Source of the DNA: Aphanomyces cochlioides
Taxonomy: Eukaryota; Oomycota; Saprolegniomycetes; Saprolegniales; Verrucalvaceae
Direction of reading: 5' to 3'
DNA: 64,000 bases
Assembly: GCA_019828595.1 (NCBI GenBank)
Contig: JAHQRK010000022.1
Location: 1,178,001-1,242,000 of the forward strand
The notes under the pieces were generated by a model that saw nothing but the letters and a program-made list of their open reading frames with translations, searched no databases and was not told the origin of the DNA. Both the position numbers and the translations under genes were made by a program. Below, in pieces: positions 453 to 39,939 of the stretch. How positions within the stretch are numbered: the stretch's first letter is position 1; every line of letters begins with the position of its first letter.

Positions 453-496
453 GGTCTTATAGTGTAGCGGTTATCACGTCTCCTTGACGTGGAGAA
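453..496 (+). pseudogene. tRNA-Val(GAC) 5' part, split by LINE copy 1
   Basis: tRNA nucleotides 1-44: acceptor 5' strand, D arm and the whole anticodon arm. The A box TAGTGTAGCGG is at 460-470. The sequence stops after AGAA and passes into the LINE at 497. Nucleotides 30-44 (482-496) are repeated at 9728-9742 as the target-site duplication. The gene cannot give a tRNA because the T arm and B box now lie 9.2 kb downstream. Confidence 0.92.
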
Positions 497-579
497 CGAC
501 TTTCGTTTTTGCTTTGTAGGTTAAACTACCACAGCCCCCCAACGGAAAATCTTGCTTTTTAGGTGCTTTCGACAACGTC
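497..579 (+). promoter_or_regulatory. LINE 5' UTR (copy 1)
   Basis: The leader before ORF1 is very short. It starts CGACTTTCG, with a T5 run at 506-510, which is a potential Pol III stop just inside the element. GGTTAAACTACC at 519-530 resembles a degenerate B box and sits about 60 bp after the A box left in the split tRNA. GTAG/CTAC around it can form a small hairpin. Whether transcription starts here, at the tRNA or elsewhere cannot be told from sequence. Confidence 0.5.
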
Positions 580-3105
580 ATGGCCTCTAGCGCGGAAAAA
601 ACCATCCTTTCGACGGTGTCTCGATTCGCTCAACGTGAATCGACGCCTGACCCTAGCCAAGCGACGCCCGGTCCGAGCCGAGAAGCCGCTGAAAAACCTC
701 CTTCCTCTAGGAACAGCGCCGCTGCGTCCGACTCTCTCCGTAGGGAAAATGTTTCCAACCAAGATGGTGTTGACTTAGGTGGTGACACTGGTCCAAATAT
801 GGACAAAAAAAATGGACCCGATGATGCAGGAATGGGTATGGATATTAATGGTTCCAACGAAAAACCTGCCTCTGACGCCAATGATGGCAAATTACCCAAG
901 GATTCTGACAAGCCTGGGGAGAATATTACCCATCCTGACGGCACCCCTCATGGACGAGTTTTACCTAATTCGAAAAATCCCTCCAAAGATGGGACAAACT
1001 CTCCTGCCAAACCCTCCAACCCCAAAAAACAAGCTTCGTCCAACAACGAAGGCAAAAAAACCAACTCGAAGAAAAATAATGTATGGGAAGGAGCCCGCCA
1101 TGTGAAAACCCAATTGGTTCGCAACACTGGTGGGCATCCCATTGACGACTCTGAATTGGAAGAATTAATTCGACAAGCTCGAGAATTCCGCCAAAACCCT
1201 ACTGCTATGGATGAATTCATTGAAGACATCTTGAAAACTCCATCCTCGAAGGCTTGCACTGTGGACATTCCTCTGGGAGAAGCTTTCCGTCAAGTCAAGG
1301 ACTACCAAATCCGAGCGAATTTAATTACCCAAAACCCGGGTACGCTTTGGGAATCGAAATTCAAGGAAATTCTGTTCCACAAGAAAAACCCGACTACTCT
1401 CTCTTTGACGTTTTATGACGATGATCTATTGCGCAAAACTTGTGGAACCTCCCTTCGTCTGGGAAAACAAGAATTTACTGTGCCTGAATATTCTCCCCAC
1501 TCGAAACTTTATTTTATTACTTTCAACAACCTGGTGGATCACGATATTCAAAAAGCGATTTTGAAAAAGTTGGAAGAGCTCACTCACTGCGTCATTGTTG
1601 GTTTTAACCCCAGTACTGACAATTTATTACGCTCGACCCAATTTCGAGTCCTTTTTGACTCCGAAACTCCTCCTTTGGCATTGGTACCAGATGATGGAGG
1701 CGAGCCTCTGAGAGAAATCGAGATCCAAAACCAAGTTTATGTTTTTCAACATAAAATTCGGTCCCTCAATCAAACGGTCCCTCCCAGCGTTCAAGCTAGA
1801 CTGGAAAAAGCCAAACAAAAAGACGACGCTAAAAAGAATACAGACCATGTCGAGGAAAACGCTACAGAGGAAAAAACTGATGCTCCCGAAAATCCATCGA
1901 CAGAAAACCAACCACCCAACACCCCGAAGGAAAATACTGGCACAACTGGAAACTCCGAATCCCCTAATGCCGATCCCAAGGAAAATCAAAATGGCAAGGA
2001 AAACTTTGTCGACCTGTCAAGCGATGTGGACATGGAACAAGAGGAGAAATCAAATATCGAAGAGGAAGAAATGGTAGCTCAACCCAAGAAGATATTAAAT
2101 CCTCCACAATCACCCAAGGGCTCGAGCGAGAATAATATTATTCTCACAGACAAACCCAATTTATCCCAGGACGAATTTAAACCAACTCGAGCCGGTTTTA
2201 TTCAAGGTCCCCAATACAAAATATCAGCTACCTCGATTCCAACACAAAATCGATTCGCTATCCTCAGCTCAGACGACTCTGACGTGACAACATCAGGCAC
2301 AACGGTTCCTCGATTCCATCTTGATATCGTTCCTACCGACACGCCCAAAAAACGTCCTGCTTCGTCCCCAAAATCAACGATACCCAAAAAAATTCCAGCC
2401 TCTACGAAACCAGCAGGAGCCAAAGTGAAGGCTCAAATCACAGAGCTGAAGAAAAAACTGAATGAATCCACCAACCCATTGGTATTTCATGATGAAACCC
2501 TCAACCAACCTGGCTTTATTGGAAATATCTATATGGACCCAAAATCTCGCAAAATCGCATCCAATTTAATTGCCTCGAGAGGAATTATACGTTTAATGGC
2601 TGGAGAAAATCCCATGCAAGCTATTGATGAAGAACGATTTACCTCGTACTACCAAAAACAGCATGGCCATCCTCCTCCTGAAAATTACAGCCCCACAAAT
2701 CTATTCCAAAGTTTGTGTCCAAATGACGAAGACTACCACATGAGAAGATCTCTAGCAGCAATCGATCTATTTCTGTCCAACAGAGCACCTGAAGCTTATA
2801 CGAACGATGAGTATATTAATCTGTGCCTGAAAGACAAAGTCCACCGTTGGCCCAATTGCAATTTAATCACGGACGCCTCCTTGATTAAATTAATTTCCAG
2901 TCCTGCTGCTGGAAACCTGGTGCAACATCATAAAATTGAAGAAGAGTTGAGCCATATTGTGAAAGATCTGGCACTCCAAACAATTGACCCTACGAAGTGT
3001 TTTGACTCGGATACTGATGCCTTGTTAACTTTACTTCCGGACGAAAAGGCTCCTGAACTCGACTACAAAGAACTTGGCGATGGTGACAATGCAGACTCCA
3101 ATTGA
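580..3105 (+). CDS. LINE ORF1 protein (putative RNA-binding, gag-like)
   Basis: 841 aa. Residues 1-190 are low-complexity, rich in Asn, Lys, Ser and Pro, and probably disordered. Residues ~225-400 look folded: strand-helix-strand patterns around LYFITFNN, the helix from DHDIQKAILKK, then CVIVGF and QFRVLFD resemble an RRM-like fold, but this is a weak reading. Residues ~405-650 are acidic and Pro/Ser-rich, with an EEEEM tract. Residues ~655-841 form a second compact region. No CCHC zinc knuckle is visible. LINE ORF1 proteins normally coat the element RNA and accompany it to the target. The start ATG is the first in the element and has G at -3 and +4. The gene ends 100 bp before ORF2. No specific family is recognised. 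Confidence 0.85.
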   Translation: MASSAEKTILSTVSRFAQRESTPDPSQATPGPSREAAEKPPSSRNSAAASDSLRRENVSNQDGVDLGGDTGPNMDKKNGPDDAGMGMDINGSNEKPASDANDGKLPKDSDKPGENITHPDGTPHGRVLPNSKNPSKDGTNSPAKPSNPKKQASSNNEGKKTNSKKNNVWEGARHVKTQLVRNTGGHPIDDSELEELIRQAREFRQNPTAMDEFIEDILKTPSSKACTVDIPLGEAFRQVKDYQIRANLITQNPGTLWESKFKEILFHKKNPTTLSLTFYDDDLLRKTCGTSLRLGKQEFTVPEYSPHSKLYFITFNNLVDHDIQKAILKKLEELTHCVIVGFNPSTDNLLRSTQFRVLFDSETPPLALVPDDGGEPLREIEIQNQVYVFQHKIRSLNQTVPPSVQARLEKAKQKDDAKKNTDHVEENATEEKTDAPENPSTENQPPNTPKENTGTTGNSESPNADPKENQNGKENFVDLSSDVDMEQEEKSNIEEEEMVAQPKKILNPPQSPKGSSENNIILTDKPNLSQDEFKPTRAGFIQGPQYKISATSIPTQNRFAILSSDDSDVTTSGTTVPRFHLDIVPTDTPKKRPASSPKSTIPKKIPASTKPAGAKVKAQITELKKKLNESTNPLVFHDETLNQPGFIGNIYMDPKSRKIASNLIASRGIIRLMAGENPMQAIDEERFTSYYQKQHGHPPPENYSPTNLFQSLCPNDEDYHMRRSLAAIDLFLSNRAPEAYTNDEYINLCLKDKVHRWPNCNLITDASLIKLISSPAAGNLVQHHKIEEELSHIVKDLALQTIDPTKCFDSDTDALLTLLPDEKAPELDYKELGDGDNADSN

Positions 3106-3205
3106 CTCGCCAACACACAAAATCAATTAAAACCACAATCACCACACCCCGACCCAAACCAACACAACGACTTGAAGTCAAAAAATCAAAACCCAAATAT
3201 TAATC

Positions 3206-6200
3206 ATGACCGTGACCACAATTAACGCGCTACCACAAGCCATTATCGACTGGGATATTAGCTTGTTTTCTCTCAACACAAATGGTCTCTCCAACTCTTT
3301 CCACCACCTTCTCAAGAACTTTCTCCTCAAAAACTCTATCTCACTTATCCAAGAAACTCGACTGCCTTACCCCAGCGACCATGGCAAAATCAATTTCTAC
3401 TGGAAAAAACATACCAACCAACAAGGCACTTTCTTCTACGAGGAGCCAATTTATTCCATCAGCAATACCTCTCATCCTACTGGAGGCCTTGCTACATTTA
3501 TTCATCCTGACTGCCCTCTGGACAATTGCACCAATTTAAACCACTCTTGGGACAAACCTCTCCTCCGTGGTCGTTATTTACTTATATCGGCCACTCTGGA
3601 CAATATACCGGTTTTTATTCACAACATCTATGCTCCGTACGACTATCACGACCGTGTGGATTTTTTTAATGATCTGCCTCGCGATTTTCCACCCGAAGCT
3701 TTTCATATTGTTGGTGGCGACTTTAACGTTATTTTCTCCCCAACATTAGATTCATGCCGTCCTTCGACTCATGCGACCCATGGCTCATATGAACTCAACC
3801 TATGGCTACAAGATTTACACCTCGTTGACATTTTCCGTCAACAAAATCCACTGAAACGTGCTTTCACAAGTCCAAAATTTGTCAATCGGCTTGACTATAT
3901 TTTCATCTCGTCTGCTATGGCATCCCTACGTCATCTGAAATTTTGTCACCTGGAACTAATTCCTCATGCTGACCACACTCCCTGCAAATTATTGACCAAA
4001 CGTCCAGCAGTATCAATGGGACCTGGTCCATGGAAAACACCACAATGGGTTCTCAACAATGACAAGGCCAAATTAATTATCTCTCGTCAACTTGAAACCT
4101 TCCTTACCAAGACCCAATTAAACTCAAATGTTGGTCTACATTTCGACACCATGATCACCAACATGCGAAATCAATTAAAATACCTACACGACGAGTTGGT
4201 CGAAAATCAACAAAGGCCTCTCAAGAAATTATCTATGGATTTGGCTTTATTGATTCGGGATTACCAAAACGCCCCATGTGCGTCCTTGATGGCACGTATC
4301 AAAACAATTCAAGCTGCCATACATGAATATCATGACAGGAAAAAAGTCCTACGGGAAGATACTGCTATGCAAACTCATCTCGAGAAAGCGGAAAGGTGTA
4401 CCAAATTTCACCTGAAGCCACCTCGCACAATCCCTTTACAAAAATCTCCCTTCAAGGCACTCAAAATGTCCAATGGAAATATTGCTTCTGATCAACAATC
4501 AATTTCCTCGACACTCCACGAGTTTTATTCTGACCTGTATGGCGACCATGAGGCAGTTGACAAGGAAAGAATGGCCAAGTATTTAAAAACTCTGATATCT
4601 CGCCGACTCAATATCGACGACAAGAGATTTATTGGGGCTCCTCTCACGGCAAACGAATTTTATTTTGCCATTAAACACTCCAAACGGAATTCAACTCCTG
4701 GGCCAAATTCACTGCCCTACGAAATTTTGAAAATGTTTCCCCATGAATGGTCCCTGGCTTTGGAAATGCTATACTATTACCAAATCAACTCTCACTCCAA
4801 CTTGGCACCCTCCCAATTGACAAGTTTAATTGTACTGCTGTACAAAAAGGACGACAAACTACTCCCAAAAAATTACCGTCCCATCAGCTTGGTCAATATC
4901 GACGTGAAAATCCTCACAATGGTCCTTGCAGAACGAATGCAGAGAATCATTCAGTCGATAGTCCACCCGGATCAAACAGGTTTTATTCGTGGTCGATCAA
5001 TCCAAACCAATTTACTGCGCTTGGAAGACCTGAATCACTTTATGAAGTTTTATTCCTCCGAGTCTATTGTGGCCCTCTTGGACTTTGAAAAAGCCTTTGA
5101 TAGGGTCAACCATTCCTATTTATTGGCAACCCTGAAGGAATTTAATTTTCCACCGTCCTTTCTCAACATGGTCAAAGTGCTTTATTCAAATCGTCGTGGA
5201 CGAATTATTGTCAATGGACATTTATCCAACCCATTTAAGATCCAACGTGGTGTTTTACAAGGCGACCCATTATCACCTCTTTTATTTGTCTTGGCGCTAG
5301 AACCTATGTGTTTAGCCATACGCAAGAGAAAAGATTTGGGCATACGAATTGGTCATCACACTCACACCGGGAGCTATTATGCAGACGACTCCCAATTGTA
5401 CTCCAAAAATACATCGACGTTGCAACTCCAACTCGACATCGTCAAAAAATTCTGTGATATCTCTGGTTTCAAGTTAAATCTCTCCAAGACAGAATTATTA
5501 ACCCATGCCAATTTACCTCCAGACCTGGCACCTTTGGCTATTACTGATGACAAACCTGCTAAATCGTTGGGCCTTTTAATTTCTCCCAACATCACAGCCA
5601 CAACACGTTTAAATTCGCTATTGGAGAAATTGGTCTCAAGAACACAACTATGGTCTTATCGAGCACGAACCCTACCCGGAAAAGTGACAATCCTAAGGTC
5701 AATTTGTTTTCCTGTGCTCTGGTATCAACTCCAATTTATTCCGATCGACAAAGAATATGCCAAACTATTCGACAAGGTCGCCAAGCAATTTATTCACGGC
5801 GATACAATTGATCCATATTCGACTCAACGTTATTTGCATCAATTCAACTCGGACATTATTTTCCTTCCAAAAGCACAAGGTGGTCTCGGATTTAAATCGT
5901 CTACCCACTGGTGGTCAAAACTACACCGGGTCATGACCTTTAAATGCTTCAAGCTACTCCTAGCACCACCTCACAACTCGTATGGTCAAACGAAATTGCC
6001 AGCATGGCTATCCATTGGAGAATATTTACTCTCCAGAGCCTTCAGTCCATGGGGAAATTTTTATGATCTCCTTTTCATGAGTCCACACTCTAGTATGTAC
6101 AAAGCCATATCCCACCAAGATAAGGTTCCACCTCTCTGGTCAGCATTTACTCGACTATGGTTATCCTTATCTCCAACCCCACTTAAATTTCCCACAGTTC

Positions 6201-7291
6201 AAGTCGATGGAAATTTTCCACTTTGGCACAATCAATTCTTACCCTTGGAGAAAACTGTCTTTGAACACTGCTATCCAAAGACTTATGATTATGCTGTATC
6301 ACTGGCAAAATTAAATTTTACCCATGTTCGCCACCTACTCGATGAAAATGGCAATCTTATGGATCGGAAAATCCTGTTAGATTGGATTAAATCTCAATGC
6401 TCAAGACGCCATTTAGCCACTCCCGATCATAAATGGTGGTATGCTCTACACGGAAGACTTAAGTCTATCCTTCCATCTCCACCCGAGGACACAGAAATTA
6501 ATTTTCGTCAGCCTACACCTTATCGGCAAACGGCTACCGAAATTACTTGGGCTGGAAATTTTAAAGATGGCTTTTTACCCTTTATTGATGCCACCTTGGA
6601 TGATTTAACTCATGAATTTAAATCCAAATCAGCTCAGGAGGTTTTACCCACAGCGCATTTATTGGTACCCTCGGATTTTTATGCCCACAAGGAAAATATT
6701 AAAGTGGTCGCATTCTACAGGCAGCCCAAATTTATTCTGCCAACGTATAGTGCTTTCATATATCGACTGCTTATACGAGCCTTACCTCTCCGATACAAAT
6801 TCAAGTACTCGGACGATATCCCGAACACTTGTATTTTCTGTCATGAAGTGGAGACGTATAAACATTTCACCTTGGACTGTCCATATACTCGAGCATGTTG
6901 GAGTCCATTTAAATCCATGGCCAGATCCCTTAACTTTACTTGGCCAACTACCATGGAAAAAATATTCTTCTCTCCTATAGCACTCCAAGACAAAGACCTC
7001 CAAGCTGGATTTAATTTGCTGTGGCCAATTTTTTTATCTTGTATTTGGTATACAATATGGAAAACTCGGTGCGACCGGATTTACCGTCCAGATTTACCTA
7101 ACAAAACACCTATGACGATATCCAGCTTAGCAGGACACATTATAAAGCGGCATCTGTACCAAGTCAATCGAGCCTCCTTGGACGACTCCACGAAGGCTTC
7201 CTTGACATCGGTGCTTCATAGTTTGCACCAGAATGAGTGGTTCTCTGCCCAAATCTTACCACAATCTCAAAACGAGACCTTGGAACCTTAA
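3206..7291 (+). CDS. LINE ORF2: APE endonuclease / reverse transcriptase
   Basis: 1,361 aa; the replicative enzyme for target-primed reverse transcription. APE-like endonuclease, residues ~20-260: Asn24 in SLNTNG, Glu50 in IQETR, GGDFN at 170-174, RLDYIF at 228-233, and Asp256-His257 in HADHTP, i.e. the full catalytic set. RT, residues ~480-760: NYRPISLVN, DQTGFIRGRS, motif A LLDFEKAFD with Asp626, motif B QGDPLSPLLF, YADD at 725-728, then FKLNLSKTELL. A C-terminal CCHC finger has Cys1209, Cys1212, His1220 and Cys1225 (C-x2-C-x7-H-x4-C), as in L1/Tx1-type ORF2. No RNase H domain is seen. The reading frame is intact. Cys246 here is Arg in the other copies that cover this site. The start is the first ATG after the gap, with A at -3. 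Confidence 0.95.
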   Translation: MTVTTINALPQAIIDWDISLFSLNTNGLSNSFHHLLKNFLLKNSISLIQETRLPYPSDHGKINFYWKKHTNQQGTFFYEEPIYSISNTSHPTGGLATFIHPDCPLDNCTNLNHSWDKPLLRGRYLLISATLDNIPVFIHNIYAPYDYHDRVDFFNDLPRDFPPEAFHIVGGDFNVIFSPTLDSCRPSTHATHGSYELNLWLQDLHLVDIFRQQNPLKRAFTSPKFVNRLDYIFISSAMASLRHLKFCHLELIPHADHTPCKLLTKRPAVSMGPGPWKTPQWVLNNDKAKLIISRQLETFLTKTQLNSNVGLHFDTMITNMRNQLKYLHDELVENQQRPLKKLSMDLALLIRDYQNAPCASLMARIKTIQAAIHEYHDRKKVLREDTAMQTHLEKAERCTKFHLKPPRTIPLQKSPFKALKMSNGNIASDQQSISSTLHEFYSDLYGDHEAVDKERMAKYLKTLISRRLNIDDKRFIGAPLTANEFYFAIKHSKRNSTPGPNSLPYEILKMFPHEWSLALEMLYYYQINSHSNLAPSQLTSLIVLLYKKDDKLLPKNYRPISLVNIDVKILTMVLAERMQRIIQSIVHPDQTGFIRGRSIQTNLLRLEDLNHFMKFYSSESIVALLDFEKAFDRVNHSYLLATLKEFNFPPSFLNMVKVLYSNRRGRIIVNGHLSNPFKIQRGVLQGDPLSPLLFVLALEPMCLAIRKRKDLGIRIGHHTHTGSYYADDSQLYSKNTSTLQLQLDIVKKFCDISGFKLNLSKTELLTHANLPPDLAPLAITDDKPAKSLGLLISPNITATTRLNSLLEKLVSRTQLWSYRARTLPGKVTILRSICFPVLWYQLQFIPIDKEYAKLFDKVAKQFIHGDTIDPYSTQRYLHQFNSDIIFLPKAQGGLGFKSSTHWWSKLHRVMTFKCFKLLLAPPHNSYGQTKLPAWLSIGEYLLSRAFSPWGNFYDLLFMSPHSSMYKAISHQDKVPPLWSAFTRLWLSLSPTPLKFPTVQVDGNFPLWHNQFLPLEKTVFEHCYPKTYDYAVSLAKLNFTHVRHLLDENGNLMDRKILLDWIKSQCSRRHLATPDHKWWYALHGRLKSILPSPPEDTEINFRQPTPYRQTATEITWAGNFKDGFLPFIDATLDDLTHEFKSKSAQEVLPTAHLLVPSDFYAHKENIKVVAFYRQPKFILPTYSAFIYRLLIRALPLRYKFKYSDDIPNTCIFCHEVETYKHFTLDCPYTRACWSPFKSMARSLNFTWPTTMEKIFFSPIALQDKDLQAGFNLLWPIFLSCIWYTIWKTRCDRIYRPDLPNKTPMTISSLAGHIIKRHLYQVNRASLDDSTKASLTSVLHSLHQNEWFSAQILPQSQNETLEP

Positions 7292-8062
7292 AAGGCATGT
7301 TATATTGCAACCTTTGAAGAAATTCACCTAAGTCACCCAAACCAATGGGAAAACTCAAAGTGGATTTTCTCGCGACCCACTTGGCCTTTTCATGCGTTTG
7401 ATGGCTCGTTAGCCCCAGCTAACAGAGCTCTATGGACACACCAAGTAACTTTATCTCATGCCGAGTCGTTCACAAAATCGACTTGACTTTATCCGTTCAC
7501 CCAAAATGGCAAAACTATCGACAACTCTGGCATTGCTCTGACGATCATTTCAGACATTCTAATGGTCTTCAGGGTTGCTAGACATCCCAAGCAGACAAAC
7601 GCAAGCGTTAGATTGCAAAAAAGTGCAGTGGTTCTCTCACAACAACACTTTGAAAATTGTTACGACGTCTCCCCCTGGGGGCGAAATCTCAAAATCGAGT
7701 GCACACTTTTTGTTCGGAAAAATTGCGCCACGGTGCCTAAAAGATTCTCCCATGTCTCCTCCTCAAGATGTGCCAGTTTGCGAGTGCTCAAACCTCGCCA
7801 AACTCGCGAAACAAAATTCGAAAGGAAATTCGACCCGGTGACACCCATTTTGAACCGGTTTCAACCCGTCACCAAAAGTGAAATTTCTCTCGACCTACTG
7901 CGTGGATTTCTACGTTTAGTGGCTTGTTATCTCAGTTGAATCGAGCTCTATGCCGAGACCAACTAGCACATATTGCAGATCTATGGTTCAAAACCACGAA
8001 CCCATTTTGGACTGTCACCCAAACCGGTGAAACACCAGGACAACTCGAACGCTTCCCCTACG

Positions 8063-8649
8063 GTCACCGAGTGACATCTAGGGGTCTAGTGGGTGGCTCC
8101 ACCACTTATTACGACTAGCCAAAGCGTTAGAACGCCCTGAAACATCCTGGTTTGCTCGCAATCCTCAATCCAAAATGTCAACCGCCCCTATCCACCGGCT
8201 ACAAAACCTTAAGTCGGCTACAGGTCGCAAATCATTTCCAATCGACCGGCTATGACTCTTTTCCATCCTATCATGGCTAGACGAGTGTTTTAAGCCATCA
8301 AGAGCGATGATTGAAGCCCTGGAACCTACTTGCCGTCGCCCCGACAACTTTTGGTGAAATGGCTAAAACTCATCGGAATGGCTCCTGAACGCAAATCAAC
8401 TCCGATCGCCCAACTTAGAGTTGGAGAGGCTCGAGAATGTCCTCGCGATGGATTTGAGCTATCAAGCACCATGATAGCAGCACAGGAACCCAACTTCCGA
8501 TTCCAAACCATTTTGAGCCGATAAGGCTCCAAAACGACCATCGTAGCTCATTTCAGCTACACGACTCTATATGCACCGATTAATATGGTGCATCCACCGC
8601 TAGCCTCCATTGATGGAGGACACCAAGTATGGCTATCTATCTCATAGCC
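8063..8649 (+). other. Cluster of short hairpins in LINE 3' UTR
   Basis: Successive perfect inverted repeats: 8063-8075 (GTCAC/GTGAC), 8092-8103 (GGTGG/CCACC), 8124-8135 (GCGTT/AACGC), 8273-8298 (ATGGCT/AGCCAT), 8410-8424 (CCAACT/AGTTGG), 8458-8478 (GCTATC/GATAGC), 8515-8529 (GAGCC/GGCTC), 8543-8560 (GTAGCT/AGCTAC), 8571-8593 (ATGCACC/GGTGCAT), 8604-8619 (CCTCCA/TGGAGG) and 8631-8649 (GGCTA/TAGCC). The last seven are nearly back to back. The same series is in copies 2-4 (25791-26377, 44797-45383, 49371-49957). Function unknown. Confidence 0.7.
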
Positions 8650-9133
8650 GTTCGGAAGTTATGACTCCTTCAAATTTGGCCGCCGAGACGCCCGATTGGA
8701 AAAAACACTGGTTTTGGCTAGCGCTCTCCCGCTACACACTACCTATGGCGATTCTAATGGTGCGCTATCCTTCGTACGTATCGTCGCTACGATTCTGCCA
8801 AGTGGCTCCATGCACCGCGGCGCCGTTCGAAATCCAGCTCCGACGATGCTCGCGCTCGAGACCTATCCGCGCATGGCGCATGTCAAAATGGCACCTCCCA
8901 AATATTTTACCCTTTTTATTATTTTTGGGAGGTTTACCCCAAAAGCCCAACCCACAAGGGATTTTCCCTCTATCTCGCCACCATCAACTCCGACGAAGAC
9001 GCTCCTGAAATCAACTTTGCTTGTCATGGAACGACCGACCTCGTTGATTTTTTTGGCTGGTCAAATCGTCCAAGAACATTTTACTTTGGATGGTCTTTTC
9101 TCTCAAACCCAGCTTTTCCCATGGATCCAGCGA

Positions 9134-9163
9134 TTTAATTCGGCCTCCTGAGGTCGAATTAAA
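9134..9163 (+). other. Strong hairpin in LINE 3' UTR
   Basis: TTTAATTCG pairs with CGAATTAAA, then a G-U wobble, then CCTC with GAGG around a 2-nt turn: about 14 pairs in 30 nt. It is kept at 26863-26892, 45869-45898 and 50443-50472. Confidence 0.75.
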
Positions 9164-9685
9164 TTGGCCACGACCTTTTTGGATTTTTTGGGCTCCTACC
9201 TCTTGCCAATTTATTTTCCTTGGGCCTGATTTTACTCTGTTTCGACCCTTTTGTCAATTTTTGGCCTTCCTCTCCTGTCGATTTATTTATTCATGGATCG
9301 ACCCCAACTCAAGCTTTTATTTACTTGGCCTTTTTCACTGCGTACCTCCACTTGGAATTTTTATCAAGACTTTTGTATACAAATTTTCAAGTCCTCCACA
9401 GTCAACCCGAAATTGCCTCGTATCTCGCCACCACCAACTCGGATCAAGATGGTCATGAAAAGAAAGTTGCTTGTATGGCTCTTCTCTATACTGTTGAATT
9501 TTTTCACAGCCTGAATCGCCATGCAACATTTTCTTTCTGCCATGGTTCCTCCAAATTACCCCACACCCAAGTCTATTTCGGTTAAGCAACACTGGACGAT
9601 TTTCCACAAGAACCTTCCAAGGTCACATTTCGCAACACATATTTATTATGCGACCTATGAAGCCAAAATCGAAAGTCTAGTTTGC

Positions 9686-9727
9686 GGCCCTTTTGGGCCA
9701 TATTAATTCTTTAATATACTCAGTTAA
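9686..9727 (+). promoter_or_regulatory. LINE 3' terminal structure, likely RT recognition end
   Basis: Two adjacent hairpins, GGCCC-TTTT-GGGCC (9686-9699) and TATTAA-TTCT-TTAATA (9701-9716), are followed by TACTCAGTTAA and then the target. Non-LTR reverse transcriptases commonly recognise a 3' RNA structure. Here the SINE ends in nearly the same last ~17 nt, which supports that role. Confidence 0.6.
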
Positions 9728-9771
9728 CCTTGACGTGGAGAAGGTCCCCGGTTCAAGTCCGGGTAAGACCA
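9728..9771 (+). pseudogene. tRNA-Val(GAC) 3' part after LINE copy 1
   Basis: tRNA nucleotides 30-73: the duplicated anticodon arm, variable loop, T arm with B box GGTTCAAGTCC, acceptor 3' strand and A73, then the T5 terminator. It is the partner of 453-496. Confidence 0.92.
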
Positions 9772-10878: not shown

Positions 10879-10951
10879 GGTCTTATAGTGTAGCGGTTAT
10901 CACGTCTCCTTGACGTGGAGAAGGTCCCCGGTTCAAGTCCGGGTAAGACCA
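10879..10951 (+). tRNA. tRNA-Val(GAC), prototype unit
   Basis: A 73-nt cloverleaf with no intron: acceptor GGTCTTA/TAAGACC, D stem GTG/CAC, anticodon stem TCTCC/GGAGA, loop TTGACGT with GAC at 34-36 (10912-10914), variable AGGTC, T stem CCCGG/CCGGG with loop TTCAAGT, and A73. The A box is TAGTGTAGCGG and the B box GGTTCAAGTCC. A Pol III terminator T5 lies at 10955-10959. The body closely resembles animal tRNA-Val, especially the D arm and the AGGTCCCCGGTTC stretch. G34 is odd: eukaryotes normally read GUC with an A34 (inosine) tRNA-Val, so GAC is rarely encoded. CCA is not encoded. Confidence 0.95.
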
Positions 10952-12058
10952 TCCTTTTTCGACCCAAATCAACTTTTTTTGCTTCCCGAATGATATCTCG
11001 GCCAATATTTTCTTCCCAACACACGCTATCTCTTATGGCACCTCACATGCTCTTCTTTCAACCGCATCACAACCCGTCATCCCCGCACGCCGACGAAATG
11101 CGTGTAAAATGACAAAAGTACTAGACTTTGCGTCTCCATTTCTCATCCATGAGGCAAGTGTACCAATCATAAAACACGCATAAATAGAACAGTTCAAACT
11201 GGACTTTCACCGAGACCCTGACACGACAAATATTCCATCTCAGTTTCACTTCAGAAAGGACGATTTTAAATCCTCATTGACTTGGAGGGGACGCTACTTG
11301 AGAAACCCTTCCAGTCATTCCTTACTCTCTTCAAAGCAACAAACTTTTCCAAAATGGACCCAACTTAAACTTAACCACACTAAACAAATCTCAACAACAG
11401 GTAGCTCCAAAGAAACAGCGATTCGTTCAAATGAATACACAATCGTATCAACCGAGCGCTGGATAGACACATCCACTCGACCTCAGAGTATGTCTCTCAA
11501 AACAATGACAGACAAGATGGAAGAGAGCATCCAATTGGACCGTTGGAACTTATTATAGATTCCAAGATACATATATGTAGATGATTACAGGAGGTCCATC
11601 GTTCCCTGTGAGTTTGTGTGTTTAGACTCGTTTTTTGTGGGAGGGGGCGATGATCCGCTTTTGGTTTGAAATGAAAGTATTTGAATAGGTCTACGAGAGG
11701 AGACAAACTTTTTCTCCCAAGCCCTTCGAGTATTGCATGTTGGCGAGGACTGACCACTCAGTTTGTCTAGGCTTTGGTTGCGAAAATAGAGTGCGCTGAA
11801 GGATTTTTGTGTCCAGAGTCGTCGTGAATGGTATGGAAACAGATCACAGACGTGGAGAGAGGAGATGATGTTTGTGACTTGTGAGGTCGAGTCTATCGTG
11901 GGCCGTGTGGTGACAGGATGTTAGTATAGGCGATGTTGTTGTGTGTGCTGACGTGATGGGTTTGGCGTTGAATGTGTGACAAGGATAGTGTTCCAATGGT
12001 TGTGAGAGGGTGTGTGATTGATGTGAATGATGAGCAAGGTAGGCATAGTAGACATGGA

Positions 12059-12131
12059 GGTCTTATAGTGTAGCGGTTATCACGTCTCCTTGACGTGGAG
12101 AAGGTCCCCGGTTCAAGTCCGGGTAAGACCA
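12059..12131 (+). tRNA. tRNA-Val(GAC)
   Basis: Identical to the gene at 10879, 1180 bp further on. The following spacer carries one extra A near 12962, making this unit 1181 bp. Confidence 0.95.
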
Positions 12132-13239
12132 TCCTTTTTCGACCCAAATCAACTTTTTTTGCTTCCCGAATGATATCTCGGCCAATATTTTCTTCCCAAC
12201 ACACGCTATCTCTTATGGCACCTCACATGCTCTTCTTTCAACCGCATCACAACCCGTCATCCCCGCACGCCGACGAAATGCGTGTAAAATGACAAAAGTA
12301 CTAGACTTTGCGTCTCCATTTCTCATCCATGAGGCAAGTGTACCAATCATAAAACACGCATAAATAGAACAGTTCAAACTGGACTTTCACCGAGACCCTG
12401 ACACGACAAATATTCCATCTCAGTTTCACTTCAGAAAGGACGATTTTAAATCCTCATTGACTTGGAGGGGACGCTACTTGAGAAACCCTTCCAGTCATTC
12501 CTTACTCTCTTCAAAGCAACAAACTTTTCCAAAATGGACCCAACTTAAACTTAACCACACTAAACAAATCTCAACAACAGGTAGCTCCAAAGAAACAGCG
12601 ATTCGTTCAAATGAATACACAATCGTATCAACCGAGCGCTGGATAGACACATCCACTCGACCTCAGAGTATGTCTCTCAAAACAATGACAGACAAGATGG
12701 AAGAGAGCATCCAATTGGACCGTTGGAACTTATTATAGATTCCAAGATACATATATGTAGATGATTACAGGAGGTCCATCGTTCCCTGTGAGTTTGTGTG
12801 TTTAGACTCGTTTTTTGTGGGAGGGGGCGATGATCCGCTTTTGGTTTGAAATGAAAGTATTTGAATAGGTCTACGAGAGGAGACAAACTTTTTCTCCCAA
12901 GCCCTTCGAGTATTGCATGTTGGCGAGGACTGACCACTCAGTTTGTCTAGGCTTTGGTTGCGAAAAATAGAGTGCGCTGAAGGATTTTTGTGTCCAGAGT
13001 CGTCGTGAATGGTATGGAAACAGATCACAGACGTGGAGAGAGGAGATGATGTTTGTGACTTGTGAGGTCGAGTCTATCGTGGGCCGTGTGGTGACAGGAT
13101 GTTAGTATAGGCGATGTTGTTGTGTGTGCTGACGTGATGGGTTTGGCGTTGAATGTGTGACAAGGATAGTGTTCCAATGGTTGTGAGAGGGTGTGTGATT
13201 GATGTGAATGATGAGCAAGGTAGGCATAGTAGACATGGA

Positions 13240-13312
13240 GGTCTTATAGTGTAGCGGTTATCACGTCTCCTTGACGTGGAGAAGGTCCCCGGTTCAAGTC
13301 CGGGTAAGACCA
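13240..13312 (+). tRNA. tRNA-Val(GAC)
   Basis: Intact copy with a T5 terminator at 13316-13320. Confidence 0.95.
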
Positions 13313-14419
13313 TCCTTTTTCGACCCAAATCAACTTTTTTTGCTTCCCGAATGATATCTCGGCCAATATTTTCTTCCCAACACACGCTATCTCTTATGGC
13401 ACCTCACATGCTCTTCTTTCAACCGCATCACAACCCGTCATCCCCGCACGCCGACGAAATGCGTGTAAAATGACAAAAGTACTAGACTTTGCGTCTCCAT
13501 TTCTCATCCATGAGGCAAGTGTACCAATCATAAAACACGCATAAATAGAACAGTTCAAACTGGACTTTCACCGAGACCCTGACACGACAAATATTCCATC
13601 TCAGTTTCACTTCAGAAAGGACGATTTTAAATCCTCATTGACTTGGAGGGGACGCTACTTGAGAAACCCTTCCAGTCATTCCTTACTCTCTTCAAAGCAA
13701 CAAACTTTTCCAAAATGGACCCAACTTAAACTTAACCACACTAAACAAATCTCAACAACAGGTAGCTCCAAAGAAACAGCGATTCGTTCAAATGAATACA
13801 CAATCGTATCAACCGAGCGCTGGATAGACACATCCACTCGACCTCAGAGTATGTCTCTCAAAACAATGACAGACAAGATGGAAGAGAGCATCCAATTGGA
13901 CCGTTGGAACTTATTATAGATTCCAAGATACATATATGTAGATGATTACAGGAGGTCCATCGTTCCCTGTGAGTTTGTGTGTTTAGACTCGTTTTTTGTG
14001 GGAGGGGGCGATGATCCGCTTTTGGTTTGAAATGAAAGTATTTGAATAGGTCTACGAGAGGAGACAAACTTTTTCTCCCAAGCCCTTCGAGTATTGCATG
14101 TTGGCGAGGACTGACCACTCAGTTTGTCTAGGCTTTGGTTGCGAAAATAGAGTGCGCTGAAGGATTTTTGTGTCCAGAGTCGTCGTGAATGGTATGGAAA
14201 CAGATCACAGACGTGGAGAGAGGAGATGATGTTTGTGACTTGTGAGGTCGAGTCTATCGTGGGCCGTGTGGTGACAGGATGTTAGTATAGGCGATGTTGT
14301 TGTGTGTGCTGACGTGATGGGTTTGGCGTTGAATGTGTGACAAGGATAGTGTTCCAATGGTTGTGAGAGGGTGTGTGATTGATGTGAATGATGAGCAAGG
14401 TAGGCATAGTAGACATGGA

Positions 14420-14492
14420 GGTCTTATAGTGTAGCGGTTATCACGTCTCCTTGACGTGGAGAAGGTCCCCGGTTCAAGTCCGGGTAAGACCA
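14420..14492 (+). tRNA. tRNA-Val(GAC), T4 terminator variant
   Basis: The tRNA is intact, but the downstream run is four T (14496-14499) rather than five. The same loss is seen after 36008, suggesting sequence exchange between distant units. Confidence 0.95.
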
Positions 14493-15599
14493 TCCTTTTC
14501 GACCCAAATCAACTTTTTTTGCTTCCCGAATGATATCTCGGCCAATATTTTCTTCCCAACACACGCTATCTCTTATGGCACCTCACATGCTCTTCTTTCA
14601 ACCGCATCACAACCCGTCATCCCCGCACGCCGACGAAATGCGTGTAAAATGACAAAAGTACTAGACTTTGCGTCTCCATTTCTCATCCATGAGGCAAGTG
14701 TACCAATCATAAAACACGCATAAATAGAACAGTTCAAACTGGACTTTCACCGAGACCCTGACACGACAAATATTCCATCTCAGTTTCACTTCAGAAAGGA
14801 CGATTTTAAATCCTCATTGACTTGGAGGGGACGCTACTTGAGAAACCCTTCCAGTCATTCCTTACTCTCTTCAAAGCAACAAACTTTTCCAAAATGGACC
14901 CAACTTAAACTTAACCACACTAAACAAATCTCAACAACAGGTAGCTCCAAAGAAACAGCGATTCGTTCAAATGAATACACAATCGTATCAACCGAGCGCT
15001 GGATAGACACATCCACTCGACCTCAGAGTATGTCTCTCAAAACAATGACAGACAAGATGGAAGAGAGCATCCAATTGGACCGTTGGAACTTATTATAGAT
15101 TCCAAGATACATATATGTAGATGATTACAGGAGGTCCATCGTTCCCTGTGAGTTTGTGTGTTTAGACTCGTTTTTTGTGGGAGGGGGCGATGATCCGCTT
15201 TTGGTTTGAAATGAAAGTATTTGAATAGGTCTACGAGAGGAGACAAACTTTTTTCTCCCAAGCCCTTCGAGTATTGCATGTTGGCGAGGACTGACCACTC
15301 AGTTTGTCTAGGCTTTGGTTGCGAAAATAGAGTGCGCTGAAGGATTTTTGTGTCCAGAGTCGTCGTGAATGGTATGGAAACAGATCACAGACGTGGAGAG
15401 AGGAGATGATGTTTGTGACTTGTGAGGTCGAGTCTATCGTGGGCCGTGTGGTGACAGGATGTTAGTATAGGCGATGTTGTTGTGTGTGCTGACGTGATGG
15501 GTTTGGCGTTGAATGTGTGACAAGGATAGTGTTCCAATGGTTGTGAGAGGGTGTGTGATTGATGTGAATGATGAGCAAGGTAGGCATAGTAGACATGGA

Positions 15600-15672
15600 G
15601 GTCTTATAGTGTAGCGGTTATCACGTCTCCTTGACGTGGAGAAGGTCCCCGGTTCAAGTCCGGGTAAGACCA
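15600..15672 (+). tRNA. tRNA-Val(GAC)
   Basis: Intact copy with a T5 terminator at 15676-15680. The spacer just before it has one extra T near 15250. Confidence 0.95.
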
Positions 15673-16779
15673 TCCTTTTTCGACCCAAATCAACTTTTTT
15701 TGCTTCCCGAATGATATCTCGGCCAATATTTTCTTCCCAACACACGCTATCTCTTATGGCACCTCACATGCTCTTCTTTCAACCGCATCACAACCCGTCA
15801 TCCCCGCACGCCGACGAAATGCGTGTAAAATGACAAAAGTACTAGACTTTGCGTCTCCATTTCTCATCCATGAGGCAAGTGTACCAATCATAAAACACGC
15901 ATAAATAGAACAGTTCAAACTGGACTTTCACCGAGACCCTGACACGACAAATATTCCATCTCAGTTTCACTTCAGAAAGGACGATTTTAAATCCTCATTG
16001 ACTTGGAGGGGACGCTACTTGAGAAACCCTTCCAGTCATTCCTTACTCTCTTCAAAGCAACAAACTTTTCCAAAATGGACCCAACTTAAACTTAACCACA
16101 CTAAACAAATCTCAACAACAGGTAGCTCCAAAGAAACAGCGATTCGTTCAAATGAATACACAATCGTATCAACCGAGCGCTGGATAGACACATCCACTCG
16201 ACCTCAGAGTATGTCTCTCAAAACAATGACAGACAAGATGGAAGAGAGCATCCAATTGGACCGTTGGAACTTATTATAGATTCCAAGATACATATATGTA
16301 GATGATTACAGGAGGTCCATCGTTCCCTGTGAGTTTGTGTGTTTAGACTCGTTTTTTGTGGGAGGGGGCGATGATCCGCTTTTGGTTTGAAATGAAAGTA
16401 TTTGAATAGGTCTACGAGAGGAGACAAACTTTTTCTCCCAAGCCCTTCGAGTATTGCATGTTGGCGAGGACTGACCACTCAGTTTGTCTAGGCTTTGGTT
16501 GCGAAAATAGAGTGCGCTGAAGGATTTTTGTGTCCAGAGTCGTCGTGAATGGTATGGAAACAGATCACAGACGTGGAGAGAGGAGATGATGTTTGTGACT
16601 TGTGAGGTCGAGTCTATCGTGGGCCGTGTGGTGACAGGATGTTAGTATAGGCGATGTTGTTGTGTGTGCTGACGTGATGGGTTTGGCGTTGAATGTGTGA
16701 CAAGGATAGTGTTCCAATGGTTGTGAGAGGGTGTGTGATTGATGTGAATGATGAGCAAGGTAGGCATAGTAGACATGGA

Positions 16780-16852
16780 GGTCTTATAGTGTAGCGGTTA
16801 TCACGTCTCCTTGACGTGGAGAAGGTCCCCGGTTCAAGTCCGGGTAAGACCA
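16780..16852 (+). tRNA. tRNA-Val(GAC)
   Basis: Intact copy. The unit is indistinguishable by eye from the prototype. Confidence 0.95.
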
Positions 16853-17959
16853 TCCTTTTTCGACCCAAATCAACTTTTTTTGCTTCCCGAATGATATCTC
16901 GGCCAATATTTTCTTCCCAACACACGCTATCTCTTATGGCACCTCACATGCTCTTCTTTCAACCGCATCACAACCCGTCATCCCCGCACGCCGACGAAAT
17001 GCGTGTAAAATGACAAAAGTACTAGACTTTGCGTCTCCATTTCTCATCCATGAGGCAAGTGTACCAATCATAAAACACGCATAAATAGAACAGTTCAAAC
17101 TGGACTTTCACCGAGACCCTGACACGACAAATATTCCATCTCAGTTTCACTTCAGAAAGGACGATTTTAAATCCTCATTGACTTGGAGGGGACGCTACTT
17201 GAGAAACCCTTCCAGTCATTCCTTACTCTCTTCAAAGCAACAAACTTTTCCAAAATGGACCCAACTTAAACTTAACCACACTAAACAAATCTCAACAACA
17301 GGTAGCTCCAAAGAAACAGCGATTCGTTCAAATGAATACACAATCGTATCAACCGAGCGCTGGATAGACACATCCACTCGACCTCAGAGTATGTCTCTCA
17401 AAACAATGACAGACAAGATGGAAGAGAGCATCCAATTGGACCGTTGGAACTTATTATAGATTCCAAGATACATATATGTAGATGATTACAGGAGGTCCAT
17501 CGTTCCCTGTGAGTTTGTGTGTTTAGACTCGTTTTTTGTGGGAGGGGGCGATGATCCGCTTTTGGTTTGAAATGAAAGTATTTGAATAGGTCTACGAGAG
17601 GAGACAAACTTTTTCTCCCAAGCCCTTCGAGTATTGCATGTTGGCGAGGACTGACCACTCAGTTTGTCTAGGCTTTGGTTGCGAAAATAGAGTGCGCTGA
17701 AGGATTTTTGTGTCCAGAGTCGTCGTGAATGGTATGGAAACAGATCACAGACGTGGAGAGAGGAGATGATGTTTGTGACTTGTGAGGTCGAGTCTATCGT
17801 GGGCCGTGTGGTGACAGGATGTTAGTATAGGCGATGTTGTTGTGTGTGCTGACGTGATGGGTTTGGCGTTGAATGTGTGACAAGGATAGTGTTCCAATGG
17901 TTGTGAGAGGGTGTGTGATTGATGTGAATGATGAGCAAGGTAGGCATAGTAGACATGGA

Positions 17960-18032
17960 GGTCTTATAGTGTAGCGGTTATCACGTCTCCTTGACGTGGA
18001 GAAGGTCCCCGGTTCAAGTCCGGGTAAGACCA
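17960..18032 (+). tRNA. tRNA-Val(GAC)
   Basis: Intact copy with a T5 terminator at 18036-18040. Confidence 0.95.
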
Positions 18033-19139
18033 TCCTTTTTCGACCCAAATCAACTTTTTTTGCTTCCCGAATGATATCTCGGCCAATATTTTCTTCCCAA
18101 CACACGCTATCTCTTATGGCACCTCACATGCTCTTCTTTCAACCGCATCACAACCCGTCATCCCCGCACGCCGACGAAATGCGTGTAAAATGACAAAAGT
18201 ACTAGACTTTGCGTCTCCATTTCTCATCCATGAGGCAAGTGTACCAATCATAAAACACGCATAAATAGAACAGTTCAAACTGGACTTTCACCGAGACCCT
18301 GACACGACAAATATTCCATCTCAGTTTCACTTCAGAAAGGACGATTTTAAATCCTCATTGACTTGGAGGGGACGCTACTTGAGAAACCCTTCCAGTCATT
18401 CCTTACTCTCTTCAAAGCAACAAACTTTTCCAAAATGGACCCAACTTAAACTTAACCACACTAAACAAATCTCAACAACAGGTAGCTCCAAAGAAACAGC
18501 GATTCGTTCAAATGAATACACAATCGTATCAACCGAGCGCTGGATAGACACATCCACTCGACCTCAGAGTATGTCTCTCAAAACAATGACAGACAAGATG
18601 GAAGAGAGCATCCAATTGGACCGTTGGAACTTATTATAGATTCCAAGATACATATATGTAGATGATTACAGGAGGTCCATCGTTCCCTGTGAGTTTGTGT
18701 GTTTAGACTCGTTTTTTGTGGGAGGGGGCGATGATCCGCTTTTGGTTTGAAATGAAAGTATTTGAATAGGTCTACGAGAGGAGACAAACTTTTTCTCCCA
18801 AGCCCTTCGAGTATTGCATGTTGGCGAGGACTGACCACTCAGTTTGTCTAGGCTTTGGTTGCGAAAATAGAGTGCGCTGAAGGATTTTTGTGTCCAGAGT
18901 CGTCGTGAATGGTATGGAAACAGATCACAGACGTGGAGAGAGGAGATGATGTTTGTGACTTGTGAGGTCGAGTCTATCGTGGGCCGTGTGGTGACAGGAT
19001 GTTAGTATAGGCGATGTTGTTGTGTGTGCTGACGTGATGGGTTTGGCGTTGAATGTGTGACAAGGATAGTGTTCCAATGGTTGTGAGAGGGTGTGTGATT
19101 GATGTGAATGATGAGCAAGGTAGGCATAGTAGACATGGA

Positions 19140-19212
19140 GGTCTTATAGTGTAGCGGTTATCACGTCTCCTTGACGTGGAGAAGGTCCCCGGTTCAAGTC
19201 CGGGTAAGACCA
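19140..19212 (+). tRNA. tRNA-Val(GAC)
   Basis: Intact copy with an unaltered 1180 bp period on both sides. Confidence 0.95.
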
Positions 19213-20319
19213 TCCTTTTTCGACCCAAATCAACTTTTTTTGCTTCCCGAATGATATCTCGGCCAATATTTTCTTCCCAACACACGCTATCTCTTATGGC
19301 ACCTCACATGCTCTTCTTTCAACCGCATCACAACCCGTCATCCCCGCACGCCGACGAAATGCGTGTAAAATGACAAAAGTACTAGACTTTGCGTCTCCAT
19401 TTCTCATCCATGAGGCAAGTGTACCAATCATAAAACACGCATAAATAGAACAGTTCAAACTGGACTTTCACCGAGACCCTGACACGACAAATATTCCATC
19501 TCAGTTTCACTTCAGAAAGGACGATTTTAAATCCTCATTGACTTGGAGGGGACGCTACTTGAGAAACCCTTCCAGTCATTCCTTACTCTCTTCAAAGCAA
19601 CAAACTTTTCCAAAATGGACCCAACTTAAACTTAACCACACTAAACAAATCTCAACAACAGGTAGCTCCAAAGAAACAGCGATTCGTTCAAATGAATACA
19701 CAATCGTATCAACCGAGCGCTGGATAGACACATCCACTCGACCTCAGAGTATGTCTCTCAAAACAATGACAGACAAGATGGAAGAGAGCATCCAATTGGA
19801 CCGTTGGAACTTATTATAGATTCCAAGATACATATATGTAGATGATTACAGGAGGTCCATCGTTCCCTGTGAGTTTGTGTGTTTAGACTCGTTTTTTGTG
19901 GGAGGGGGCGATGATCCGCTTTTGGTTTGAAATGAAAGTATTTGAATAGGTCTACGAGAGGAGACAAACTTTTTCTCCCAAGCCCTTCGAGTATTGCATG
20001 TTGGCGAGGACTGACCACTCAGTTTGTCTAGGCTTTGGTTGCGAAAATAGAGTGCGCTGAAGGATTTTTGTGTCCAGAGTCGTCGTGAATGGTATGGAAA
20101 CAGATCACAGACGTGGAGAGAGGAGATGATGTTTGTGACTTGTGAGGTCGAGTCTATCGTGGGCCGTGTGGTGACAGGATGTTAGTATAGGCGATGTTGT
20201 TGTGTGTGCTGACGTGATGGGTTTGGCGTTGAATGTGTGACAAGGATAGTGTTCCAATGGTTGTGAGAGGGTGTGTGATTGATGTGAATGATGAGCAAGG
20301 TAGGCATAGTAGACATGGA

Positions 20320-20392
20320 GGTCTTATAGTGTAGCGGTTATCACGTCTCCTTGACGTGGAGAAGGTCCCCGGTTCAAGTCCGGGTAAGACCA
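20320..20392 (+). tRNA. tRNA-Val(GAC)
   Basis: Last intact gene before LINE copy 2. Confidence 0.95.
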
Positions 20393-29834: not shown

Positions 29835-29851
29835 GGGGGGAAATTGGCTCA

Positions 29852-37230: not shown

Positions 37231-37313
37231 TGACTTTCGTTTTTGCTTTGTAGGTTAAACTACCACAGCCCCCCAACGGAAAATCTTGCTTTTTAGGTGC
37301 TTTCGACAACGTC

Positions 37314-39839: not shown

Positions 39840-39939
39840 CTCGCCAACACACAAAATCAATTAAAACCACAATCACCACACCCCGACCCAAACCAACACA
39901 ACGACTTGAAGTCAAAAAATCAAAACCCAAATATTAATC

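What the first reader, a model, noticed from the sequence alone, without database searches (positions are those of the whole stretch)
497..9727. A LINE that inserts into the anticodon arm of a tRNA gene
Seen: five LINE copies (497, 21547, 37231, 47658, 56951) all interrupt tRNA-Val(GAC) in the same orientation. Their 3' ends abut tRNA nucleotide 30, and the duplicated target covers nucleotides 30-44, i.e. most of the anticodon stem-loop. Known: R1/R2 in rDNA and several Tx1-group elements are site-specific, and Dictyostelium TRE elements insert near but outside tRNA genes. Inference: this LINE's endonuclease targets sequence inside the mature tRNA region, which I do not recall as a described niche for an APE-type LINE.
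Basis: partly seen in the sequence, partly recalled or inferred. Interest (0 to 1): 0.92.

Follow-up and report, generated by a model that had tools for sequence, protein, structure and literature searches.

The report
LINE that splits tRNA anticodon arms
A jumping gene in a sugar-beet water mould, and a small hitchhiker element with a matching tail, sit at nearly the same place inside many different tRNA genes, which raises the question of how they find tRNA genes so precisely.

Summary
The window lies in a tRNA-Val(GAC) tandem array of Aphanomyces cochlioides. It holds seven insertions, not five: five copies of one L1-group, APE-type LINE and two SINE-like copies. All are in tRNA sense orientation, with the 3' junction at nt 30. 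The LINE copies have three different truncation points plus two full-length copies, so they are not one duplicated insertion.

The exact LINE 3' end occurs 127 times. Of the 100 listed, 80 lie in canonical tRNA genes (Ala, Val, Asp, Phe), 4 in tRNA-like sequence, 16 elsewhere. Two LINE copies in Thr genes, and SINE copies in Gly and Arg genes, were also read. Junctions fall at nt 28-32 of the anticodon arm, nearly always before CC.

A sister LINE family (43% identical ORF2) also inserts before CC, 16 of 16 copies, but in tRNA genes in 0 of 16. tRNA targeting is thus a separate trait; how it works is not shown. RLE-type LINEs and Dada DNA transposons in tRNA genes are published; nine searches found no L1-group case inside the gene.

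The parts
453..496 (+). 5' part (nt 1-44) of the tRNA-Val(GAC) gene split by LINE copy 1
497..9727 (+). LINE copy 1, full length
580..3105 (+). ORF1, 841 aa, no Pfam family; 9 homologues found, 8 named Aphanomyces and one unnamed
3206..7291 (+). ORF2, 1361 aa: APE-type endonuclease (about residues 18-260), reverse transcriptase (547-789), zf-RVT-like region (1177-1232, below the Pfam cut-off)
9712..9727 (+). LINE 3' tail TAATATACTCAGTTAA, mostly shared with the SINE tail
9728..9771 (+). tRNA-Val nt 30-73 after LINE copy 1; its first 15 bases CCTTGACGTGGAGAA are the duplicated target
21547..27456 (+). LINE copy 2, 5' truncated at LINE position 3323; target duplication 18 bp (nt 30-47)
29835..30943 (+). 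composite SINE-like insertion: about 755 bp of another repeat followed by the 353-bp SINE (30591-30943)
32142..32494 (+). SINE, 353 bp, tRNA-derived head, tail TAATATACTCAATAAA
32150..32206 (+). tRNA-like head of the SINE (RF00005, 31.5 bits, cut-off 29)
37231..46462 (+). LINE copy 3, full length
47658..51036 (+). LINE copy 4, 5' truncated at LINE position 5853
56951..64000 (+). LINE copy 5, 5' truncated at LINE position 631; runs past the window, 3' end at C15:1243551
10879..21499 (+). nine uninterrupted units (about 1180 bp each) of the tRNA-Val(GAC) array

Best explanation
It is an L1-group, APE-type non-LTR retrotransposon of Aphanomyces cochlioides that inserts by target-primed reverse transcription into the 5' side of the anticodon arm of many different tRNA genes; a SINE with a matching tail is found at the same kind of site and is most likely mobilised by it. 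I propose two layers. Layer 1: the complex is brought to tRNA genes by something they share, most likely the Pol III factors bound at the A and B boxes that flank the anticodon arm (inferred). Layer 2: within the arm the endonuclease nicks the bottom strand so that the new 3' junction falls before a CC (position rule shown; strand, enzyme and nick inferred from known TPRT). The GG primer end may pair with CC at, or read through into, the 3' end of the element RNA (inferred). The second cut falls about 14-18 bases on, giving the duplication of the anticodon stem-loop (duplication shown). Array duplication by unequal exchange then multiplies some insertions (inferred from spacing and shared junctions).
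For: Seven insertions in the window at one base, one orientation, with duplications. Of the 100 listed LINE 3' ends (127 exist), 80 lie in canonical tRNA genes and 4 in sequence that looks tRNA-like by eye. With the element left out and the flanks joined, 25 of 34 sites were called tRNA genes by aragorn, all Ala, Val, Thr, Arg or Gly. Distinct 30-base 3' flanks begin CC in 28 of 29 LINE and 9 of 10 SINE cases, against a 5.6% background. Endonuclease and RT are L1-like. The sister family has CC in 16 of 16 flanks, native to the target in the 5 sites where an uninserted copy could be compared, but 0 of 16 are in tRNA genes, which separates the two layers. The SINE has no TTTT, so a Pol III transcript from it would be expected to run into the tRNA half and its terminator.
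Against: 16 of 100 listed LINE 3' ends (14 distinct sites) are not in tRNA genes, and the 6 such sites whose flanks could be joined gave no tRNA, so a tRNA gene is not required. Off-target sites are enriched for CCGC (6 of 16 distinct sites, counting two from other lists; p about 7e-5), the letters found at tRNA-Ala, -Thr, -Arg and some -Asp sites, which favours some direct reading of letters. No protein-protein or transcription data exist here. The ORF1 model was too poor to show a binding domain (mean pLDDT 34.6).
Confidence: 0.55

Rival explanations
1. Direct sequence recognition: the endonuclease/ORF2 reads an anticodon-arm motif such as CCGCTT, as other site-specific APE LINEs read their targets; no host factor is involved.
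For: Off-target sites share CCGC in 6 of 16 distinct sites, two of them CCGCTTCG. The junction is at one base in each tRNA type read except Asp, which has two.
Against: Val (CCTTGACG), Gly (CCCTTCC), Asp at nt 31 (CCTGTC) and Phe (CTGAAG) share little beyond CC or C; the clearest thing common to all is the place in a tRNA gene.
Confidence: 0.27
2. RNA guidance: element transcripts read through into the downstream tRNA half, and this half pairs with the nicked target, so a copy in a tRNA gene sends its offspring to similar tRNA genes.
For: At C23:520818 two copies of the 15-base tail flank CCGCTTAA, which looks like a tail followed by tRNA-Ala/Thr sequence used as template. The SINE lacks a Pol III terminator. 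The off-target CCGC enrichment fits.
Against: One locus only. Lack of TTTT in 353 bases is not rare by chance. A donor in tRNA-Val should favour CCTTGACG sites, yet no off-target flank read begins CCTTGACG. No RNA 3' end has been mapped.
Confidence: 0.15
3. Survivorship and array amplification: insertion is at any CC; copies in redundant tRNA arrays are tolerated and then multiplied by unequal exchange.
For: Many copies look like array duplicates: several C24 copies recur at about 10.08 kb, and one SINE junction class dominates C15.
Against: Does not explain one orientation and nt 28-32 only, in nine tRNA genes; the sister family, which also inserts before CC, is in 0 of 16 tRNA genes; different 5' truncations in the window.
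Confidence: 0.03

Closest known systems
RLE-type tRNA-gene-specific LINEs: NeSL-1_TV (tRNA-Pro), LIN15_SM (tRNA-Arg), LIN25_SM (tRNA-Glu)
   Same: Non-LTR retrotransposons reported as tRNA-gene-specific (PMC4640811, passages)
   Different: NeSL-related families, each reported for one tRNA gene; their position within the gene was not seen by me (supplementary figure). Here: APE-type, L1 group, several tRNA genes, partner SINE.
Dada DNA transposons (Dada-tV, -tA, -tD, -tL)
   Same: Insert around the anticodon of tRNA genes; copies of one family such as Dada-tV_CaAu lie in more than one tRNA type (PMC8869645, passages)
   Different: DNA transposons with 6-7 bp duplications (PMC3706591, passages), inserted opposite to the tRNA gene in the anticodon group
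TRE5, TRE3, NLTR-A, NLTR-B of social amoebae
   Same: L1-type LINEs aimed at tRNA genes; TRE5 ORF1 interacts with TFIIIB (PMC5911963, Table 1 passage)
   Different: Insert outside the gene (2-150 bp away); here inside the mature sequence at a nearly fixed place
Dewa (zebrafish)
   Same: Target-specific non-LTR element linked to tRNA genes
   Different: Target is the spacer of tRNA-Leu (PMC3706591, passage)
Human LINE-1
   Same: Closest solved relative: ORF2p E 4.4e-66; L1 endonuclease structures E 8.5e-9 to 2.4e-8
   Different: Human L1 nicks TTTTT/AA (abstract of PMC8565326 in the listing) and has a poly(A) tail (recalled). Here CC target and a fixed tail without poly(A)
Sister LINE family in the same genome (P0002-like)
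   Same: 43% identical ORF2, same endonuclease motifs, junction before CC in 16 of 16
   Different: 0 of 16 in tRNA genes; 3' UTR about 150 nt against 2436 nt

Membership tests
L1-group APE-type non-LTR retrotransposon | RT closest to L1 ORF2p | tested here: met
   Best PDB match human L1 ORF2p, E 4.4e-66; R2 E 1.6e-26; in the tree it lies on the side of the branch (87/98) that also holds human L1 and the named plant proteins
L1-group APE-type non-LTR retrotransposon | Apurinic-type endonuclease at the N terminus of ORF2 | tested here: met
   L1 endonuclease structures matched, E 8.5e-9; motifs NTNG, QET, NIYAP, GGDFN, RLDYI, DH present (motifs recalled)
L1-group APE-type non-LTR retrotransposon | 5' truncations, variable-length target duplications, no long terminal repeats | tested here: met
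Tx1 clade | RT inside the Tx1 clade | not tested
   No Tx1 reference sequence was obtained; clade within the L1 group left open
Site-specific LINE | Nearly all copies at one target | tested here: inconclusive
   80 of 100 listed LINE 3' ends in canonical tRNA genes, 4 tRNA-like, 16 elsewhere: strong preference, not strict
TRE-like tRNA-targeted elements | Insertion at a distance outside the tRNA gene | tested here: not met
   The tRNA insertions read lie before nt 28, 30, 31 or 32
TRE-like tRNA-targeted elements | Interaction with Pol III factors | not testable with these tools
   Needs biochemistry
NeSL-type tRNA-gene-specific LINEs | Restriction-like endonuclease and NeSL-related RT | tested here: not met
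   APE endonuclease; L1-like RT; no NeSL reference was placed in the tree
tRNA-derived SINE | tRNA-like head and tail shared with a LINE | tested here: met
   Head 31.5 bits to RF00005; tails alike in 13 of the last 15 bases; same target sites
tRNA-derived SINE | Mobilised by this LINE | not testable with these tools
   Inferred from tail, target and junctions only

The most novel reading that the evidence does not exclude
An L1-group LINE/SINE pair that finds tRNA genes as a class: it recognises the assembled Pol III gene, or is steered by the tRNA half that its own transcripts carry, and splits the anticodon arm where a CC lies there; a sister LINE with the same local CC rule lacks this layer, so the targeting layer can be located by comparing two relatives in one genome.
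Probability: 0.5. Interest if true: 0.88.

Novelty: new variant of a known kind. Interest (0 to 1): 0.75.

Why it matters
Target-specific LINEs are generally thought to read one DNA sequence directly, while TRE elements use Pol III factors but land beside the gene (PMC3706591 and PMC5911963, passages). This pair appears to combine near-exact insertion with recognition of tRNA genes as a class, and the non-targeting sister family in the same genome gives a ready control for finding what directs it. It also shows how heavy a load a tRNA array can carry: 97 split against 116 uninterrupted tRNA-Val(GAC) cores by exact match.

Tried and rejected
Rejected: duplication of one insertion as the whole explanation (different 5' truncations; though much array amplification exists); gene conversion between tRNA genes (where both flanks were read they belong to the same local tRNA gene); tRNA-Val-only specificity; a rebuilt Pol III promoter for the LINE (its 5' end holds GGTTAAACTAC, 9 of 11 to a recalled B-box consensus, but 4% of random LINE 60-mers do as well, and a TTTTT lies before it). 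Led nowhere: ORF1 structure (mean pLDDT 34.6; no fold search made), ORF1 family and structure searches, Tx1 placement (no reference), folding of tails and SINE head (z -2.0, -0.4, 0.8), Rfam on the LINE (only weak hits). 5' windows: the LINE 5' end was found in 24 of 38 windows guessed from full-length spacing (16 of 20, 8 of 18). Papers: nine searches of the PMC open-licence library; subscription journals and Repbase were not searched.
Full report
WHAT WAS CHECKED. The window is C15:1178001-1242000 of a 76.2-Mb assembly of 94 contigs. The ORF1 hit P0064, 99% identical, is named Aphanomyces cochlioides and its longest contig is 4,030,798 bases, the length of contig C23 here, so the host is A. 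cochlioides, an oomycete. The array unit is about 1180 bp with one tRNA-Val(GAC); 17 are uninterrupted in the window. Split units run from C15:1084666 to 1507402, close to the contig end at 1508571.

INSERTIONS IN THE WINDOW. Seven elements split tRNA-Val genes. Five are one LINE: full-length at 497-9727 and 37231-46462; 5' truncated at LINE positions 3323, 5853 and 631 in the others. All are in the sense of the tRNA gene. The 5' flank ends at tRNA nt 44 (nt 47 in copy 2); the 3' flank starts at nt 30. The two full-length copies start at the same LINE base but carry one extra base, C or T, and differ by 21 bases of 9231; whether they are two events is open. Copies differ pairwise by 0.09-0.66%. 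The two further elements are a 353-bp SINE (32142-32494) and a composite of another repeat plus the same SINE (29835-30943). The SINE head scores 31.5 bits as tRNA (cut-off 29); its last 15 bases, AATATACTCAATAAA, match the LINE's AATATACTCAGTTAA in 13.

WHAT THE LINE IS. ORF1 (841 aa) has no Pfam family. ORF2 (1361 aa) has RVT_1 (E 7e-39), an L1-type endonuclease, and as closest solved relative human LINE-1 ORF2p (E 4e-66; R2 E 1.6e-26). In a 65-row RT tree it pairs with P0001 (93% identical over ORF2, organism not named; 100/100), sits in an eight-row clade with all four A. euteiches rows (99/95), and falls on the side of human L1 and the named plant proteins (87/98), outside the group that holds these (84/93). 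No Tx1 reference was available, so L1 or Tx1 clade is left open. Of 34 scored ORF2 places (1879 candidates), 33 lack stops, which suggests recent activity.

GENOME-WIDE SURVEY, LINE. The exact LINE 3' end occurs 127 times, 100 listed. For these 100, 80 flanks were read and 20 (Val array) were matched by the pattern: Ala-AGC 34, Val-GAC 21, Ala-CGC 13, Ala-TGC 6, Asp-GTC 5, Phe-GAA 1, together 80 in canonical tRNA genes; 4 in sequence that looks tRNA-like by eye (L014, L029, L036, L084); 16 elsewhere, in 14 distinct sites (flanks). Asp and Phe were assigned by eye from the 3' flank, Asp supported by intact tRNA-Asp genes downstream in the three loci scanned; their 5' flanks were not read. Beyond the list, two Thr-AGT copies, four Ala-AGC copies on C27, and non-tRNA sites L013 and L041 were read; at one expected place the tail was not found (L039). 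Other unlisted copies were not surveyed.

GENOME-WIDE SURVEY, SINE. 133 exact SINE 3' ends exist, 100 listed. I read 39 SINE 3' ends (one, L016, with a variant tail): 21 in tRNA-Val (two in the window), 7 Ala-AGC, 3 Gly-TCC, 1 Ala-CGC, 1 Arg-ACG, 4 in tRNA-like sequence (L009, L016, L024, L126), 1 directly before another SINE (L174), 1 in a non-tRNA site (L015, read again as L138). This was a chosen sample, with 20 places from C15.

POSITION AND DUPLICATION. Counting from the anticodon at 34-36, the 3' junction lies before nt 28 in Ala, Thr, Arg and one Asp copy, nt 30 in Val and Gly, nt 31 in four Asp copies, nt 32 in Phe (my count). With the element left out, 25 of 34 joined sites were called tRNA genes; the other nine were six non-tRNA LINE sites and three tRNA-like SINE sites. 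One SINE (L015) had no duplication and was not joined. Duplications were 14-18 bp with two exceptions: L033 gave 9, and L080 gave 8 by script, or 16 with one mismatch by eye.

THE CC RULE. Among distinct 30-base flanks, 28 of 29 LINE and 9 of 10 SINE flanks begin CC; background is 5.6%. The exceptions are Phe (CTG) and L009 (TCC). In the 23 LINE sites with both flanks, the 5' copy of the duplication begins with CC as well, so the CC is native to the target. The 16 distinct non-tRNA LINE sites (the 14 plus L013 and L041) all begin CC, and 6 continue as CCGC; with GC following CC in 4.8% of cases this has p about 7e-5.

THE SISTER FAMILY. P0002 of A. euteiches (43% identical to this ORF2) has 34 scored relatives here at 97% identity (1972 candidates). 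I read the 3' flanks of 16: 16 of 16 have the tail ...ATTTAA or ATTCAA followed by CC (one with an extra A), and 0 of 16 give a tRNA gene within about 700 bp. The 16 flanks are not all distinct (L179 = L184; L188 and L191 nearly so). For the five target sites where another locus shows the uninserted sequence, CC is native there in all five. So the CC rule is shared and tRNA targeting is not. Its 3' UTR is about 150 nt; that of the tRNA LINE is 2436 nt.

SIZE OF THE BIAS. A first look gave 5429 tRNA candidates, of which 63 were scored; taken as real, they would cover about 0.5% of the genome. Against this, 80 of 100 copies are in tRNA genes. Copies are not independent; by distinct sites, 8 of 28 are canonical tRNA genes (p about 1.5e-12).

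INDEPENDENCE. In the window there are three LINE truncation points, the full-length end, and two SINE-type junctions. In 20 SINE copies from 19 C15 stretches there are at least six 5' junction classes; one (GAGAATGAGG) accounts for nine plus a recombined tenth, which points to array duplication. Several C24 copies recur at about 10.08 kb, and those read at both ends have the same junctions. Independent events are therefore far fewer than copies, but tRNA genes of five amino acids (Val, Ala, Thr, Gly, Arg) show their own local duplications.

MECHANISM. Shown: place, orientation, duplication, CC rule, sister contrast. Inferred: target-primed reverse transcription, bottom-strand nick, tether to tRNA genes. 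I favour recognition of a feature common to tRNA genes because the letters at the Val, Gly, Asp(31) and Phe sites have little in common; the CCGC bias off target and the 16 non-tRNA copies speak for some direct reading. RNA guidance is suggested by C23:520818, where two 15-base tails flank CCGCTTAA, and by the lack of TTTT in the SINE (not rare by chance).

KNOWN WORK. PMC4640811 (passages) gives RLE-type elements as tRNA-Pro, -Arg and -Glu gene-specific. PMC8869645 (passages) gives Dada DNA transposons in the anticodon arm. PMC3706591 (passages) gives Dewa in the tRNA-Leu spacer. PMC5911963 (passages with Table 1) lists TRE5, TRE3, NLTR-A and NLTR-B, all outside the gene. PMC5035012 (one passage) names tRNA genes among LINE targets without detail. 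No APE-type LINE inside tRNA genes showed in the listings or in the passages read; only openly licensed PMC papers were searched, and listings show only the best-ranked papers.

VERDICT. Real, repeated and unusual: a new variant of a known kind.

Noticed in passing
29870-30590: The 5' part of the composite SINE insertion is another repeat: 40 near-exact matches scored of 191 candidates, with an antisense ORF of 236 aa and no Pfam family; two copies lie among LINE copies on C24.
   Followed up: partly
L148 (C23:520300-521000), L093, L094: One non-tRNA site (CCAAAGCAGTGACAA) was hit repeatedly: two LINEs head to tail plus two 15-base tail fragments, with CCGCTTAA between the fragments.
   Followed up: partly
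C2:1150007-1183954 (L010, L011, L140): Two LINE copies and two copies of the 721-bp repeat each recur 17.1 kb apart, suggesting a duplicated unit of about 17 kb.
   Followed up: no
519-529 (LINE positions 23-33): B-box-like GGTTAAACTAC near the LINE 5' end; with the tRNA 5' half it scores 24.5 bits to the tRNA model, below cut-off; 4% of random LINE 60-mers hold as good a box.
   Followed up: partly
L174 (C15:1335877-1336730): A second SINE directly behind the first, after CC, lacking its first seven bases.
   Followed up: no
8964-9029 and 9413-9478: A stretch of about 66 bp of the long LINE 3' UTR occurs twice, about 80% alike.
   Followed up: no
C36 and C23:3862984-4023924: tRNA genes in opposite orientation about 1025 bp apart, repeated many times: further large tRNA arrays.
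   Followed up: no
L179, L184, L188, L191; L180, L190, L192, L193, L194: Sister-LINE copies cluster too: four of 16 lie next to a 185-bp tandem repeat, and five have flanks from one shared repeated sequence, perhaps their own family's.
   Followed up: no
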